Part shown: piece by piece, positions 23,188 to 26,293 of the stretch
Layout of the letters: every line of letters starts with the position of its first letter
Position numbering within the stretch: position 1 is the first letter of the stretch
Origin: an uncultured Verrucomicrobiota bacterium
GTDB taxonomy: Bacteria > Verrucomicrobiota > Verrucomicrobiia > Verrucomicrobiales > Verrucomicrobiaceae
Length of the DNA stretch: 64,000 nt
Assembly (NCBI GenBank): GCA_903838675.1
Contig: CAILZI010000126.1
Span: 62,001 to 126,000 of the forward strand
Direction: 5' to 3'
Made by a program: the position numbers and the translations under genes
The notes under the pieces: generated by a model
Told to the model about the DNA's origin: nothing
Seen by the model: the letters and a program-made list of their open reading frames with translations, nothing else
Database searches by the model: none

Positions 23188-24318
23188 TCAAACCACCGTG
23201 CCACGACCACTTTTCGGCGTGTTTTTCTTGGATTTGGAGTCTGGCAGACCCTCATCCTGGAGAATGGTATCCTGAGGGAGAGGCTCCGCCCCTTCCTCTC
23301 CTTTGGGATCGGGCTCAGCAAAGGGGGTGGCCTTTTGGTAGAGTTTGAGGCGGGTGTCGAATTCCTCTTGCAACTTTTTGCGGTCTTCTTCAGGAAGGTC
23401 TTTGTCGTCGTTAAGCAGGGTGATGCAGCGCTTCTGCCAGAGCTCGGCTTCCTTGTATTCACCGTTGCGAGCGAGTGCGGCAGCCATGGTGTCGATCATT
23501 TCGTAAGGCTGCTCATCGCTCTGAACGACTTCAGCGACAAGTTTCAAGGCACGACGTGCAAGCAGGACGGCGCTTTCGCCATTGTGCAGATTGTCCTCCG
23601 GGCAGGTGGCCAGGAACCAAGCGAGATTGTTGGAAGCCCAAGGATCCTCGGAGCGCGCGGCGCGGCGGTACCAAGCTCCGGCACGGCGGTAATCCACCGG
23701 CAGGCCCTGGCCGGTGTAATAGAGATTCGCCAGGCGCGTCATGGCGGGAACGAAATCCTGCTGCGCGGCTTTGAGGTACCAGAGCGCCGCCTTTGAAGCA
23801 CTTTTGGCAATGCCGTCGCCCCGTTCGAGCTTGGAAGCATAGGCGGTCTGTGAGGGAGGATTCCCCTGGTCGGCGGCTTTCTTGAACCATTCCGCCGCTT
23901 TGGCTGTGTCTTTGGTCACGCCTTTGCCTTCCTCATACATGGCGGCCAGACTGTGCTGTGAAAGGGCAAAGCCAAGTTCCGCAGAGCTGCGATACCACTC
24001 CGCCGCCTTGGCGAGATCTTTTTTCACCCCGACCCCGTCTTCATAAAGCGTTCCCAGGACATGCTGCGCGCGCAGGTGCTTCTGCTTGGCGGCTTTTTCG
24101 ACGGACTTCACGCCTTCCTCGAGATTTTTCTTCAAGCCTTCACCTGTGATCATGCGCAGTCCGAGTTCGAACTGAGCATCGGCATCGCCACGATCAGCCC
24201 AGTCTCGAAGATCCTTTTCATCAACACGCTGAGGCTGCTGCGCCGTCAGGATTGAAGCAGAAAACAGCAAGGCAACAAGGAGGCCGGCGAGGAGGGGGGG
24301 GAAAGACGCATGCTTCAT
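23188..24318 (-). CDS. Secreted Sel1/TPR-repeat protein
   Basis: 376 aa with signal peptide (MKHASFPPLLAGLLVALLFS, cleavage near TAQQ). About five Sel1-like repeats of about 36 residues follow, for example AQHVLGTLYEDGVGVKKDLA, ALSQHSLAAMYEEGKGVTKD and AMTRLANLYYTGQGLPVDYR. After these come two TPR-like helical pairs and an acidic, Pro/Lys-rich tail (EPDPKGEEGAEPLPQDTI). Sel1 proteins are protein-protein adaptors; the partner is unknown. The upstream region contains a stem-loop at 24357-24393, then the divergently oriented c-di-AMP riboswitch unit. Confidence 0.82.
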   Translation of the reverse strand: MKHASFPPLLAGLLVALLFSASILTAQQPQRVDEKDLRDWADRGDADAQFELGLRMITGEGLKKNLEEGVKSVEKAAKQKHLRAQHVLGTLYEDGVGVKKDLAKAAEWYRSSAELGFALSQHSLAAMYEEGKGVTKDTAKAAEWFKKAADQGNPPSQTAYASKLERGDGIAKSASKAALWYLKAAQQDFVPAMTRLANLYYTGQGLPVDYRRAGAWYRRAARSEDPWASNNLAWFLATCPEDNLHNGESAVLLARRALKLVAEVVQSDEQPYEMIDTMAAALARNGEYKEAELWQKRCITLLNDDKDLPEEDRKKLQEEFDTRLKLYQKATPFAEPDPKGEEGAEPLPQDTILQDEGLPDSKSKKNTPKSGRGTVV

Positions 24319-24356
24319 GAGGCGAAATTACGTCTAGCTGTGGCCGTCTCAACCAT

Positions 24357-24393
24357 CAAAATGCAGCCGCCCCTTAAATTGGCGGTCATTTTG
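24357..24393. other. Stem-loop in the leader of the Sel1 gene
   Basis: CAAAATG (24357-24363) pairs with CATTTTG (24387-24393), and after a two-base bulge CCGCC (24367-24371) pairs with GGCGG (24381-24385), leaving a 9-base AT-rich loop. It lies about 40 bases before the minus-strand ATG at 24318. It could be a leader structure of the Sel1 mRNA or an operator; there is no U-run, so a terminator is unlikely. Confidence 0.4.
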
Positions 24394-24516
24394 CCTCCAT
24401 TCACTGCAAACCTAAGGCCAAGAAATCTGCGCAAATACAACGGCTGACACCCTGCAATCCAAAAAAACTGCCCCCCATGTCAAGCCGTTGCTCCCAGTTT
24501 ATCTTGGACCGCCATT

Positions 24517-24545
24517 TTGACAAAATGCCCAAGTCGTGCGTAAAT
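24517..24545 (+). promoter_or_regulatory. Candidate promoter for the c-di-AMP riboswitch transcript
   Basis: A perfect -35 box TTGACA (24517-24522) is followed after 17 bases by a poor -10 (GTAAAT, 24540-24545). The -35 box sits inside an inverted repeat CATTTTG-A-CAAAATG (24513-24527), a possible operator. It ends just before the riboswitch. The weak -10 keeps confidence low. Confidence 0.4.
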
Positions 24546-24549
24546 GGAA

Positions 24550-24710
24550 CTGCAGCCGAAGCTGCCATTCCTTCCAGAATGGTGGCGCGGGGGACCCAAC
24601 GAACCCTGAGTCGAAAGACCCAGGGCGGGGCGAAGGAAGGTGGGTAACCACTGACCAGTCCACTTCCAAGGACCAGTCCGACAGCTAACCTCGCAGGCGA
24701 CATTGGAAGG
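24550..24710 (+). promoter_or_regulatory. ydaO/yuaA-class (c-di-AMP) riboswitch
   Basis: Three conserved blocks occur in order and at the right spacing: GCGGGGGACCCAA (about 24586-24599), GGGGCGAA (24627-24634) and CCGACAGCTAACCTCGCAGG (24678-24697). They match the ydaO-yuaA class (Rfam RF00379, recalled). Stems are visible: GCCATTC/GAATGGTGGC, AACCCTGAG.../...CCCAGGG and GGAAG(g)TGG/CCACTTCC. The class binds cyclic di-AMP and usually switches genes off. Downstream, TTGGAAGG (24703-24710) can pair with CTTCCAA (24663-24669) of an aptamer stem. It also contains the ribosome binding site GGAAGG, eight bases before the ATG at 24719, which suggests control of translation start. No terminator hairpin with a U-run follows. 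Confidence 0.9.
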
Positions 24711-24718
24711 GCGATCCT

Positions 24719-24856
24719 ATGCCCGTCGCGAGTGCGCCGGAACCATGGTCTCCCAAGAACCACCGCACCCGCGAGTGGACGGGAAACCGCCCACAGACCG
24801 GGGCCTATGAGACCCATACCCATGAACTGCCAAAAATATCCCAGCCTCATGACTGA
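24719..24856 (+). CDS. 45-aa ORF directly under the riboswitch
   Basis: ATG at 24719 with a strong ribosome binding site GGAAGG (24705-24710) at 8-base spacing, inside the riboswitch expression platform. The peptide begins MPVASAPEPWSPKNHRTREW and ends at TGA 24854-24856. It is hydrophilic, rich in His, Pro and Thr, with no recognisable domain. Its stop region overlaps the ATG of the next small ORF by eight bases (ATGACTGA), typical of translational coupling. It could be a true small protein, a leader peptide, or the first part of a gene split from the next frame by a +1 shift. Confidence 0.5.
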   Translation: MPVASAPEPWSPKNHRTREWTGNRPQTGAYETHTHELPKISQPHD

Positions 24857-25019
24857 GAGCTTTTTCAATGACTCCCCCTGGACCACGCAGCCGCCGCCAG
24901 CATCCCTGATCCTGAACTGGGTGCAAGTGATCTACCAGCCCGACTGCCGCCCAGAAGAACTCGACTTCGATCAGGCTTGGAGCGCTGCGCCTTATGCAAG
25001 CGCCCTGCGCCTCGCCTAA
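24849..25019 (+). CDS. 56-aa ORF overlapping the riboswitch-controlled ORF
   Basis: ATG at 24849 overlaps the end of the previous ORF; an in-frame ATG at 24822 is possible. The peptide starts MTESFFNDSPWTTQPPPASL, contains LILNWVQVIYQPDCRPEELD and ends YASALRLA. Compact, Trp-containing and acidic; no domain recognised. It sits 41 bases before the 172-aa membrane protein, so all three may be read from the riboswitch transcript. Confidence 0.45.
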   Translation: MTESFFNDSPWTTQPPPASLILNWVQVIYQPDCRPEELDFDQAWSAAPYASALRLA

Positions 25020-25060
25020 CGAACCAGCGCCTGAAACTCCAATTCCAATCTGAAATCAAC

Positions 25061-25579
25061 ATGACTCATCACCACTTCAAAGCCCCCTGGGGCCGCACCT
25101 TGCTCATCATCTCCGTTTTCACGACGCTGGTGACGCTTGGAGTTGCCATCATGCTTACACTCGGTCGGCAAACGCCTCAATTTTTCAGCCTGCCTGCACT
25201 GCCCTCGCGCGCGTTGATCATCGCTGCAGTGCTGCTCATTCCACTCGGTGCGCTGCCGTTCATCATTCGCGGTTACGTTCTGACCAAGGATGGCATTCTC
25301 ATCAAACGCCTGTGGTGGAACACCGTGCTTCCATTCACCGAAATGCGCACCGTCGAAGTCGAACCGCTCGCGCTGAGCCACAGCTTTCGCACCTGTGGCA
25401 ATGGCGGCCTTTACTCCTTCACCGGCTGCTACTGGAGCAGGCAACTCGGCCACTTCCGTGCTTACGTCACCGATTTGAACCGCACTGTCATCGTCCACAT
25501 GAAGAACCGCACTGCCGTGCTTTCTCCAGACGATCCAGAGGCATTCTCCCGCGCCGTCACCTCCCGCCTGCATTCCTAA
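25061..25579 (+). CDS. Two-helix membrane protein with PH-like C-terminal domain
   Basis: 172 aa from the ATG at 25061 (MTHHHFKAPWGRTLLIISVF). Two membrane helices (about residues 13-35 and 48-70) are followed by a beta-rich domain beginning RGYVLTKDGILIKRLWWNTV and continuing LPFTEMRTVEVEPLA and LYSFTGCYWSRQLGHFRAYV. The arrangement resembles small bacterial PH-domain membrane proteins. It is the largest product on the riboswitch transcript, and a perfect intrinsic terminator follows. c-di-AMP riboswitches commonly control envelope and osmotic functions, so an envelope role is plausible (inference). Confidence 0.75.
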   Translation: MTHHHFKAPWGRTLLIISVFTTLVTLGVAIMLTLGRQTPQFFSLPALPSRALIIAAVLLIPLGALPFIIRGYVLTKDGILIKRLWWNTVLPFTEMRTVEVEPLALSHSFRTCGNGGLYSFTGCYWSRQLGHFRAYVTDLNRTVIVHMKNRTAVLSPDDPEAFSRAVTSRLHS

Positions 25580-25626
25580 TCCAATTTGGAACTCAACATC
25601 GGCGCCACCTGACATGCTAAAATCAC

Positions 25627-25657
25627 GGGCTGCGGATTCATTTCCGCAGCCCATTTT
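25627..25657 (+). terminator. Intrinsic terminator after the riboswitch unit
   Basis: Perfect 10-bp stem GGGCTGCGGA / TCCGCAGCCC with a 6-base loop (TTCATT), followed by ATTTT. It lies 47 bases after the stop of the 172-aa protein gene and before the lipoprotein gene. Confidence 0.85.
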
Positions 25658-25704
25658 CACGCTCCAGCATTCGCTTTCAGTTCCAAATATGTTAAGGGAG
25701 TCGT

Positions 25705-26160
25705 ATGAAAGCACTCCCGCGCATCGCTTTGCTCGCCTGTTTCAGCATTCTTTTTCTTGTCGGCTGCGACGCTAACACAAATGCCATTCCTGGCCCGCCG
25801 TTTGCCTATGATGACTTTGGCACTGAATTGATGGCCAGTGACCTGCTTGGCCCCAAGGGCACGAACACTCAGGTGATAGCTCGGTTTGGTTCCACAAAAT
25901 CAACTCCGCCGCCTGAAGGTCCAGATGTGCGTTATGTCAGTGTCGGGCAGGCCATGAACCACCTGCGTCGCAGTGTGCGCAAAATGCCCAGAACTCCGGA
26001 AAATGAACCGCTGCACAAGCGTCTCTCGGCCACCTACAGCCGCTTGTACTATCAATATTCCTCGACACGCGACTCGTTTCTCTCCGCTCCCTCGGGCAGT
26101 TATGGCAGGGGTGGCATGAACCGGGCGCTCATGATGCCCCCGATGCCTCCATCAATCTGA
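25705..26160 (+). CDS. Small lipoprotein of unknown function
   Basis: 151 aa. The signal peptide MKALPRIALLACFSILFLVG ends at a lipobox LVGC, so Cys21 should be lipidated. The following Asp-Ala might favour inner-membrane retention if a Lol-type rule applies. The mature part has no recognised domain: a linker, then a helical region (VGQAMNHLRRSVRKMPRTPE) and a Gly/Ser/Met/Pro-rich end (GRGGMNRALMMPPMPPSI). It follows a terminator and so has its own promoter. Confidence 0.7.
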   Translation: MKALPRIALLACFSILFLVGCDANTNAIPGPPFAYDDFGTELMASDLLGPKGTNTQVIARFGSTKSTPPPEGPDVRYVSVGQAMNHLRRSVRKMPRTPENEPLHKRLSATYSRLYYQYSSTRDSFLSAPSGSYGRGGMNRALMMPPMPPSI

Positions 26161-26219: not shown

Positions 26220-26293
26220 GCGGGTGTAGCTCAATGGTAGAGCAGGTGCTTCCCAAGCATCATACGTCAGTTCGATTCTGATCACCCGCTCCA
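26220..26293 (+). tRNA. tRNA-Gly (anticodon CCC)
   Basis: Acceptor stem GCGGGTG (26220-26226) pairs with CACCCGC (26283-26289); discriminator T26290 and CCA 26291-26293 are encoded in the DNA. The D arm is GCTCAATGGTAGAGC, the anticodon loop TTCCCAA gives anticodon CCC, and the T arm is GTCAGTTCGATTCTGAT. All arms fold normally. Confidence 0.95.

What the first reader, a model, noticed from the sequence alone, without database searches (positions are those of the whole stretch)
24517..25657. Complete c-di-AMP riboswitch operon driving two tiny overlapping ORFs and a membrane protein
Three ydaO/yuaA consensus blocks occur in order, the last very close (CCGACAGCTAACCTCGCAGG). The element ends in TTGGAAGG, which contains the ribosome binding site of a 45-aa ORF and can instead pair with an aptamer arm, giving a plausible on/off switch at translation. 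Known ydaO targets (recalled) are mostly wall hydrolases and potassium or osmolyte transporters. Here the targets are two unknown small proteins and a two-helix PH-like protein, closed by a perfect terminator. This would be a new type of c-di-AMP regulon.
Basis: partly seen in the sequence, partly recalled or inferred. Interest (0 to 1): 0.8.

Follow-up and report, generated by a model that had tools for sequence, protein, structure and literature searches.

The report
c-di-AMP riboswitch of a membrane-protein operon
A genuine c-di-AMP riboswitch lies here, but the tiny first protein is not real; in sister species the switch heads an operon for a flotillin-like membrane protein, and that gene is missing from this genome.

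Summary
The riboswitch is real: RF00379 matches window 24544-24714 at 46.5 bits (cut-off 38), and the genome encodes a diadenylate cyclase. ORF1 (24719) is not conserved: ATG in 7 of 18 genus loci, with drifting frame. Its "RBS", TTGGAAGG, holds the 3' strand of the known ydaO pseudoknot, which covaries over 42 riboswitches. ORF2 is an internal start of a 65-aa frame (24822-25019) that is a two-CxxC zinc-ribbon-like protein in relatives; here the cysteines are lost. The membrane gene (25061-25579) is bPH_5. All 17 other riboswitch genomes of the genus also carry a ~600-aa SPFH/band-7 gene in the operon; in this assembly about 32 nt stand in its place. Riboswitch and SPFH otherwise co-occur perfectly (17 both, 30 neither, 1 exception of 48). 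Elsewhere in the phylum the riboswitch mostly precedes K+ transporters. No intrinsic terminator follows the aptamer; in relatives a leader strand pairs just upstream of the true start codon, suggesting translational control, but energy modelling does not confirm ligand coupling. I found no paper naming SPFH genes as c-di-AMP riboswitch targets.

The parts
24544..24714 (+). c-di-AMP (ydaO/yuaA) riboswitch aptamer, RF00379
   Evidence: 46.5 bits vs gathering 38; 18 of 48 genus genomes carry it (17 over the cut-off, one at 37.8 bits)
24663..24669 (+). aptamer loop CTTCCAA, 5' strand of the pseudoknot
   Evidence: 6-bp core (24663-24668 with 24704-24709) paired in 92.8% of 180 cells over 30 distinct rows of 42; both-side changes in 6 of 6 pairs; slid controls 58-67%
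   Evidence: the TTGG(A/G)AGG tail is present in 18 of 18 genus loci although ORF1's ATG is present in 7
24722..24741 (+). post-aptamer hairpin (24722-24729 with 24734-24741)
   Evidence: 92% of cells paired, but 5 of 8 pairs invariant and only 2 with both-side changes; outermost pair and one inner pair broken in the window
24747..24752 (+). leader strand GGTCTC, proposed start-site sequestering strand
   Evidence: pairs with the pre-start GARACC in all 19 sequences tested
24809..24814 (+). GAGACC, 7 nt upstream of the true start codon; partner of 24747-24752
   Evidence: GGTCTC/GAGACC versus GGTTTC/GAAACC between genomes; mean duplex energy -9.6 kcal/mol versus -5.4 for shuffled partners
24719..24856 (+).
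   Evidence: start not conserved in 11 of 18, frame and phase drift
   Evidence: relatives carry CRECG..WRCPQC; cysteines lost in 7 of 18 genus loci including the window; mean dN/mean dS 0.62 in that group
25061..25579 (+). membrane protein with bacterial PH domain (bPH_5, PF10882), 172 aa
   Evidence: 49.8 bits; pairwise dN/dS of the window with six relatives 0.15-0.19
25587..25618 (+). junction where the SPFH/band-7 gene stands in relatives
   Evidence: collinear with G027 up to 25586 and from 25619; 1859 nt of G027 including the 597-aa SPFH gene have no counterpart
25627..25652 (+). operon-closing stem-loop, same as the one after the SPFH gene in relatives

Best explanation
This is a genuine c-di-AMP riboswitch at the head of an envelope operon typical of one verrucomicrobial genus (Prosthecobacter and relatives): riboswitch, small zinc-ribbon-like protein, optional bPH membrane protein, SPFH/band-7 (flotillin-like) protein, terminator. 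In the window the SPFH gene has dropped out between the bPH gene and the terminator, and the zinc-ribbon ORF has lost its cysteines, leaving riboswitch plus bPH. Shown: riboswitch identity, pseudoknot, gene order in relatives, co-occurrence with SPFH, absence of SPFH from this assembly, no intrinsic terminator before the first gene. Inferred: c-di-AMP binding closes the pseudoknot with the tail (24703-24709) and turns expression off, as in other ydaO switches; the switch acts on translation, with the leader strand GGTYTC (24747-24752) pairing with GARACC just upstream of the start codon (24809-24814).
For: RF00379 46.5 bits; DAC domain protein in the genome, 125.9 bits; pseudoknot covariation; SPFH in 17 of 48 genus genomes, all 17 being riboswitch genomes (Fisher p 4e-12, not corrected for kinship); SPFH directly or closely downstream in other genera and families (G276, G147, G240, G310, G366, G037); window collinear with G027 on both sides of the missing gene, with the same terminator; no SPFH elsewhere in G000; leader/pre-start duplex -9.6 vs -5.4 kcal/mol, matched partners better than partners swapped between genomes in all but 2 of 5000 permutations; no + strand terminator-like site between aptamer and 24822.
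Against: Energy modelling gives almost no difference in start-region accessibility with the tail blocked or free (0.57 vs 0.59), and in the window itself the sequestering helix is improbable. The sequences are related, so the permutation count is not a probability. The tail/leader alternative pairing carries a mismatch in the window's group. The missing SPFH could be an assembly fault: the genome is in 265 contigs and 92.6% complete, and no reads were available. bPH shows no relaxed constraint.
Confidence: 0.75

Rival explanations
1. The operon in the window is: riboswitch controlling two small proteins through the ORF1 ribosome binding site.
For: GGAAGG lies at a plausible distance before ATG 24719, and the ATG is present in 7 of 18 genus loci.
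Against: CTG replaces ATG in 11 of 18; frame and phase drift; the GGRAGG tail is kept regardless, and is explained by the pseudoknot.
Confidence: 0.05
2. The SPFH gene is really present in this organism and was lost only in the assembly; the window operon is then the ordinary four-gene operon.
For: Fragmented genome (265 contigs); bPH under normal constraint in the window (dN/dS 0.15-0.19).
Against: The junction lies inside a 207-kb contig without N, collinear on both sides, and nothing like the gene is found elsewhere in the assembly.
Confidence: 0.2
3. The riboswitch acts on transcription (Rho-dependent or by pausing) rather than on start-codon access.
For: Energy modelling does not support ligand-dependent sequestration. 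As quoted in PMC9960051 (passages read), a Streptomyces c-di-AMP riboswitch lacks a canonical terminator.
Against: Leader/start-site complementarity kept in 19 of 19 sequences despite register shifts.
Confidence: 0.3
4. In the window the riboswitch is a decaying relic without function.
For: SPFH absent, zinc-ribbon cysteines lost, leader helix improbable in the window.
Against: Aptamer score 46.5 bits, within the 45.3-46.8 of L006-L010; six relatives with an intact SPFH have also lost the cysteines; bPH is constrained.
Confidence: 0.25

Closest known systems
ydaO/yuaA c-di-AMP riboswitch (RF00379)
   Same: Covariance-model match over all 134 positions, conserved blocks, tail pseudoknot
   Different: Targets here are SPFH/bPH/zinc-ribbon-like genes; K+ transporters, the commonest target seen elsewhere in this phylum, are not next to it
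Corynebacterium glutamicum nlpC c-di-AMP riboswitch (PMC9960051, passages read)
   Same: No canonical terminator; control proposed at translation, through pairing near the start of the first gene
   Different: There a CTCC is proposed to block the SD GGAG; here the paired bases GARACC are not a Shine-Dalgarno sequence and the evidence is comparative only
c-di-AMP riboswitches before K+ transporters in Verrucomicrobia (stated as predicted in PMC6488665, passages read)
   Same: Same riboswitch class and phylum; seen here too: KimA-like, KUP, TrkH, KdpA
   Different: Window lineage has the SPFH operon instead
Bacterial SPFH/band-7 operons (flotillin-like; recalled)
   Same: SPFH gene with small membrane partners
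   Different: Control by a c-di-AMP riboswitch was not found in the papers searched

Membership tests
RF00379 c-di-AMP riboswitch | Covariance-model score above the curated cut-off | tested here: met
   46.5 vs 38 bits
RF00379 c-di-AMP riboswitch | Pseudoknot between the arm loop and the 3' tail | tested here: met
   the pseudoknot is in print for the ydaO structure (PMC5393176, passages read)
RF00379 c-di-AMP riboswitch | Organism can make c-di-AMP (DAC domain) | tested here: met
   G000:C173, 125.9 bits
RF00379 c-di-AMP riboswitch | Binds c-di-AMP | not testable with these tools
   needs in-line probing
RF00379 c-di-AMP riboswitch | Regulates the downstream gene | not testable with these tools
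   needs a reporter assay
Translational c-di-AMP riboswitch (C. glutamicum nlpC type) | No intrinsic terminator between aptamer and first gene | tested here: met
   window only
Translational c-di-AMP riboswitch (C. glutamicum nlpC type) | Ligand-dependent masking of the start region | tested here: inconclusive
   comparative support, energy model flat
Riboswitch-SPFH operon of this genus | SPFH/band-7 gene downstream | tested here: not met
   absent from the window and from the G000 assembly
bPH_5 (PF10882) | Pfam cut-off | tested here: met
   49.8 vs 22.5 bits
Zinc-ribbon-like small protein (weak DUF6487, PF20097) | Two CxxC pairs | tested here: not met
   window ORF has none; no Pfam match at E 1. 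Relatives: weak DUF6487, 20.2 and 18.7 bits vs cut-off 24

The most novel reading that the evidence does not exclude
c-di-AMP, elsewhere in this phylum tied mainly to potassium uptake, has been re-wired in this lineage to a membrane-scaffold operon (SPFH/flotillin-like protein with zinc-ribbon-like and bPH partners) through a translational riboswitch that masks a start codon lacking a Shine-Dalgarno sequence; in the window species the scaffold gene has been lost and bPH alone remains under c-di-AMP control.
Probability: 0.4. Interest if true: 0.55.

Novelty: new variant of a known kind. Interest (0 to 1): 0.4.

Why it matters
If the SPFH operon is controlled by c-di-AMP, the osmolyte/turgor messenger acts not only on ion transport and wall enzymes but on a membrane-organising protein, in a phylum where c-di-AMP is hardly studied. 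The perfect riboswitch-SPFH co-occurrence in 47 of 48 genomes gives a clean, testable prediction, and the window genome gives a natural case in which the main target is gone.

Tried and rejected
ORF1 as a gene: rejected. TTGGAAGG as a dedicated ribosome binding site: rejected in favour of the pseudoknot. A + strand terminator downstream of the aptamer as expression platform: none listed. Tail/leader pairing as the ON state: it fits GGGAGG and TTTCCC genomes but carries a mismatch in the window's group; left open. Post-aptamer hairpin: kept as probable, but covariation is weak. bPH as the constant partner: rejected; relatives of it occur without a riboswitch, and it is absent next to 7 of 18 riboswitches. 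AlphaFold model of the SPFH protein: mean pLDDT 59.4, too poor to use; no fold search was made. One search used a wrong frame for the bPH gene and its zero is void; one search replaces it. RNAalifold and custom covariance models were not used.

Full report
Riboswitch. cmscan places RF00379 at 24544-24714 on the + strand with 46.5 bits against a gathering score of 38. It is the only one in the 7.09-Mb genome, which also encodes a DAC-domain protein. Genus-wide 18 of 48 genomes have the element, 17 over the cut-off and one at 37.8 bits; phylum-wide 24 of 387, one of them (G079, 28.4 bits) below the cut-off. Both searches used strict filters, so they are lower bounds.

The tail is not a ribosome binding site for ORF1. 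The tail TTGGAAG (24703-24709) is complementary to the loop CTTCCAA (24663-24669). Over 42 riboswitches (30 distinct rows) the 6-bp core is paired in 92.8% of cells, all 6 pairs show changes on both sides, and slid controls fall to 58-67%. Four or more rows are shifted by one column in that alignment and count as partly unpaired. This pseudoknot is in print for the ydaO crystal structure (PMC5393176, passages read). ORF1 itself starts with ATG in 7 of 18 genus loci and CTG in 11, and its frame length and its phase to the next gene vary.

The real first gene. In relatives the conserved start is CCATGAAC or similar (24822 in the window). Eight of 18 genus loci encode a small protein with two CxxC pairs; two have only the first pair before a stop; seven, the window included, have lost the cysteines; one (L005) keeps an 18-aa remnant. 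Pfam gives only weak DUF6487 matches for two of the cysteine-bearing ones, 20.2 and 18.7 bits against a cut-off of 24. Mean dN over mean dS is 0.62 in the cysteine-less group and 0.34 in eight cysteine-bearing sequences, so the ORF in the window's group is at best weakly constrained. The frame nevertheless stays open in all seven.

The membrane gene. 25061-25579 is bPH_5, 49.8 bits. Pairwise dN/dS of the window with six relatives is 0.15-0.19, like the other pairs, 0.12-0.29. A bPH gene lies next to 11 of 18 riboswitches; in L011 its start is frame-shifted. Relatives of it also occur away from any riboswitch; of the genus search's 18 of 48 genomes with a match, several have only such copies.

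The missing gene. In all 17 other riboswitch genomes of the genus an SPFH/band-7 gene of about 600 aa follows (one, G023, runs off its contig). The protein search over the same 48 genomes finds it in exactly those 17: 17 both, 30 neither, 1 riboswitch only, which is the window (Fisher p 4e-12, not corrected for kinship). Window and G027 are collinear up to 25586 and again from 25619; what follows is the same stem-loop that closes the operon after SPFH in G027 and G058, then the same lipoprotein-like gene (G058 has it too). Two searches of G000 find no SPFH; the second has 17 positive genomes as control. An assembly fault cannot be excluded.

Wider targets. Of the 24 riboswitch genomes of the phylum draw, the first large gene is KimA-like (AA_permease_2) in 8, KUP in 3, TrkH in 3, KdpA in 1, SPFH in 5, a Na/H exchanger, a citrate synthase and a porin in 1 each, and the window's bPH in 1 ('KimA-like' is my label by recall). 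SPFH also follows the riboswitch in G037, of another family. In one search, 7 of 14 SPFH-bearing named loci had the riboswitch, all seven from records titled Verrucomicrobi- or close kin (Brevifollis, Pedosphaera); seven did not (mostly proteobacterial records, one Actinomadura, one verrucomicrobial locus cut at its contig end). Names among the relatives include Prosthecobacter, Brevifollis gellanilyticus and Verrucomicrobium sp..

Mechanism. No + strand terminator-like site was listed in 24300-25720. In all 19 sequences tested (18 genus loci plus L090) the leader strand GGTYTC can pair with GARACC close upstream of the start codon. The mean duplex energy is -9.6 kcal/mol, against -5.4 for shuffled partners; swapping partners between genomes does as well in 2 of 5000 permutations. 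GGTCTC goes with GAGACC and GGTTTC with GAAACC, with L004 (G-U) and L010/L011/L019 (extra base) in between. Against this, partition-function modelling shows little change of start-region accessibility when the tail is blocked (0.57 vs 0.59 unpaired), and in the window the helix is improbable (0.23 expected pairs). The intervening hairpin has weak covariation. The translational reading is therefore an inference, with a precedent in C. glutamicum (PMC9960051, passages read). In L072, a kup leader, GGGGAG lies at Shine-Dalgarno distance before the start, and an upstream TCTCCC is complementary to it (by eye).

Literature. Searches for c-di-AMP + riboswitch + flotillin (two papers; passages of PMC5052260 read, which does not link them; PMC9228545 seen only in the listing), ydaO + SPFH (none), riboswitch + SPFH (one paper, on mitochondria, listing only), c-di-AMP + riboswitch + band 7 (none), c-di-AMP + Prosthecobacter (none), c-di-AMP riboswitch + Verrucomicrobi and ydaO + Verrucomicrobi (three papers each) gave no report of SPFH targets in the listings and passages seen; PMC6488665 states K+ transporter targets in Verrucomicrobia. 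Subscription papers are not covered.

Noticed in passing
window 26220-26290: A tRNA (67.4 bits) lies just downstream of the lipoprotein-like gene; by eye its anticodon is CCC (Gly).
   Followed up: no
L072 6360-6500 (- strand): kup leader with a complementary TCTCCC and GGGGAG before the start codon: a possible translational c-di-AMP switch of a K+ transporter in another class of the phylum.
   Followed up: partly
L102, L107, L108, L109, L111: Proteobacterial records carry relatives of the SPFH protein (44-64% identity) without a c-di-AMP riboswitch.
   Followed up: partly
L063 5194-6255: A c-di-AMP riboswitch (86.3 bits) 63 nt before a citrate synthase gene in another verrucomicrobial genome, an unusual target.
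   Followed up: no
A2/A3 alignments, SPFH protein residues 30-310: The SPFH protein seems to hold repeated beta units (motifs HFQDA.AFL..GG and VG.V) before the band-7 domain; the AlphaFold model was too poor to judge.
   Followed up: partly
L143: A genus member without riboswitch (G015) has a bPH relative with 50% identity elsewhere in its genome.
   Followed up: partly
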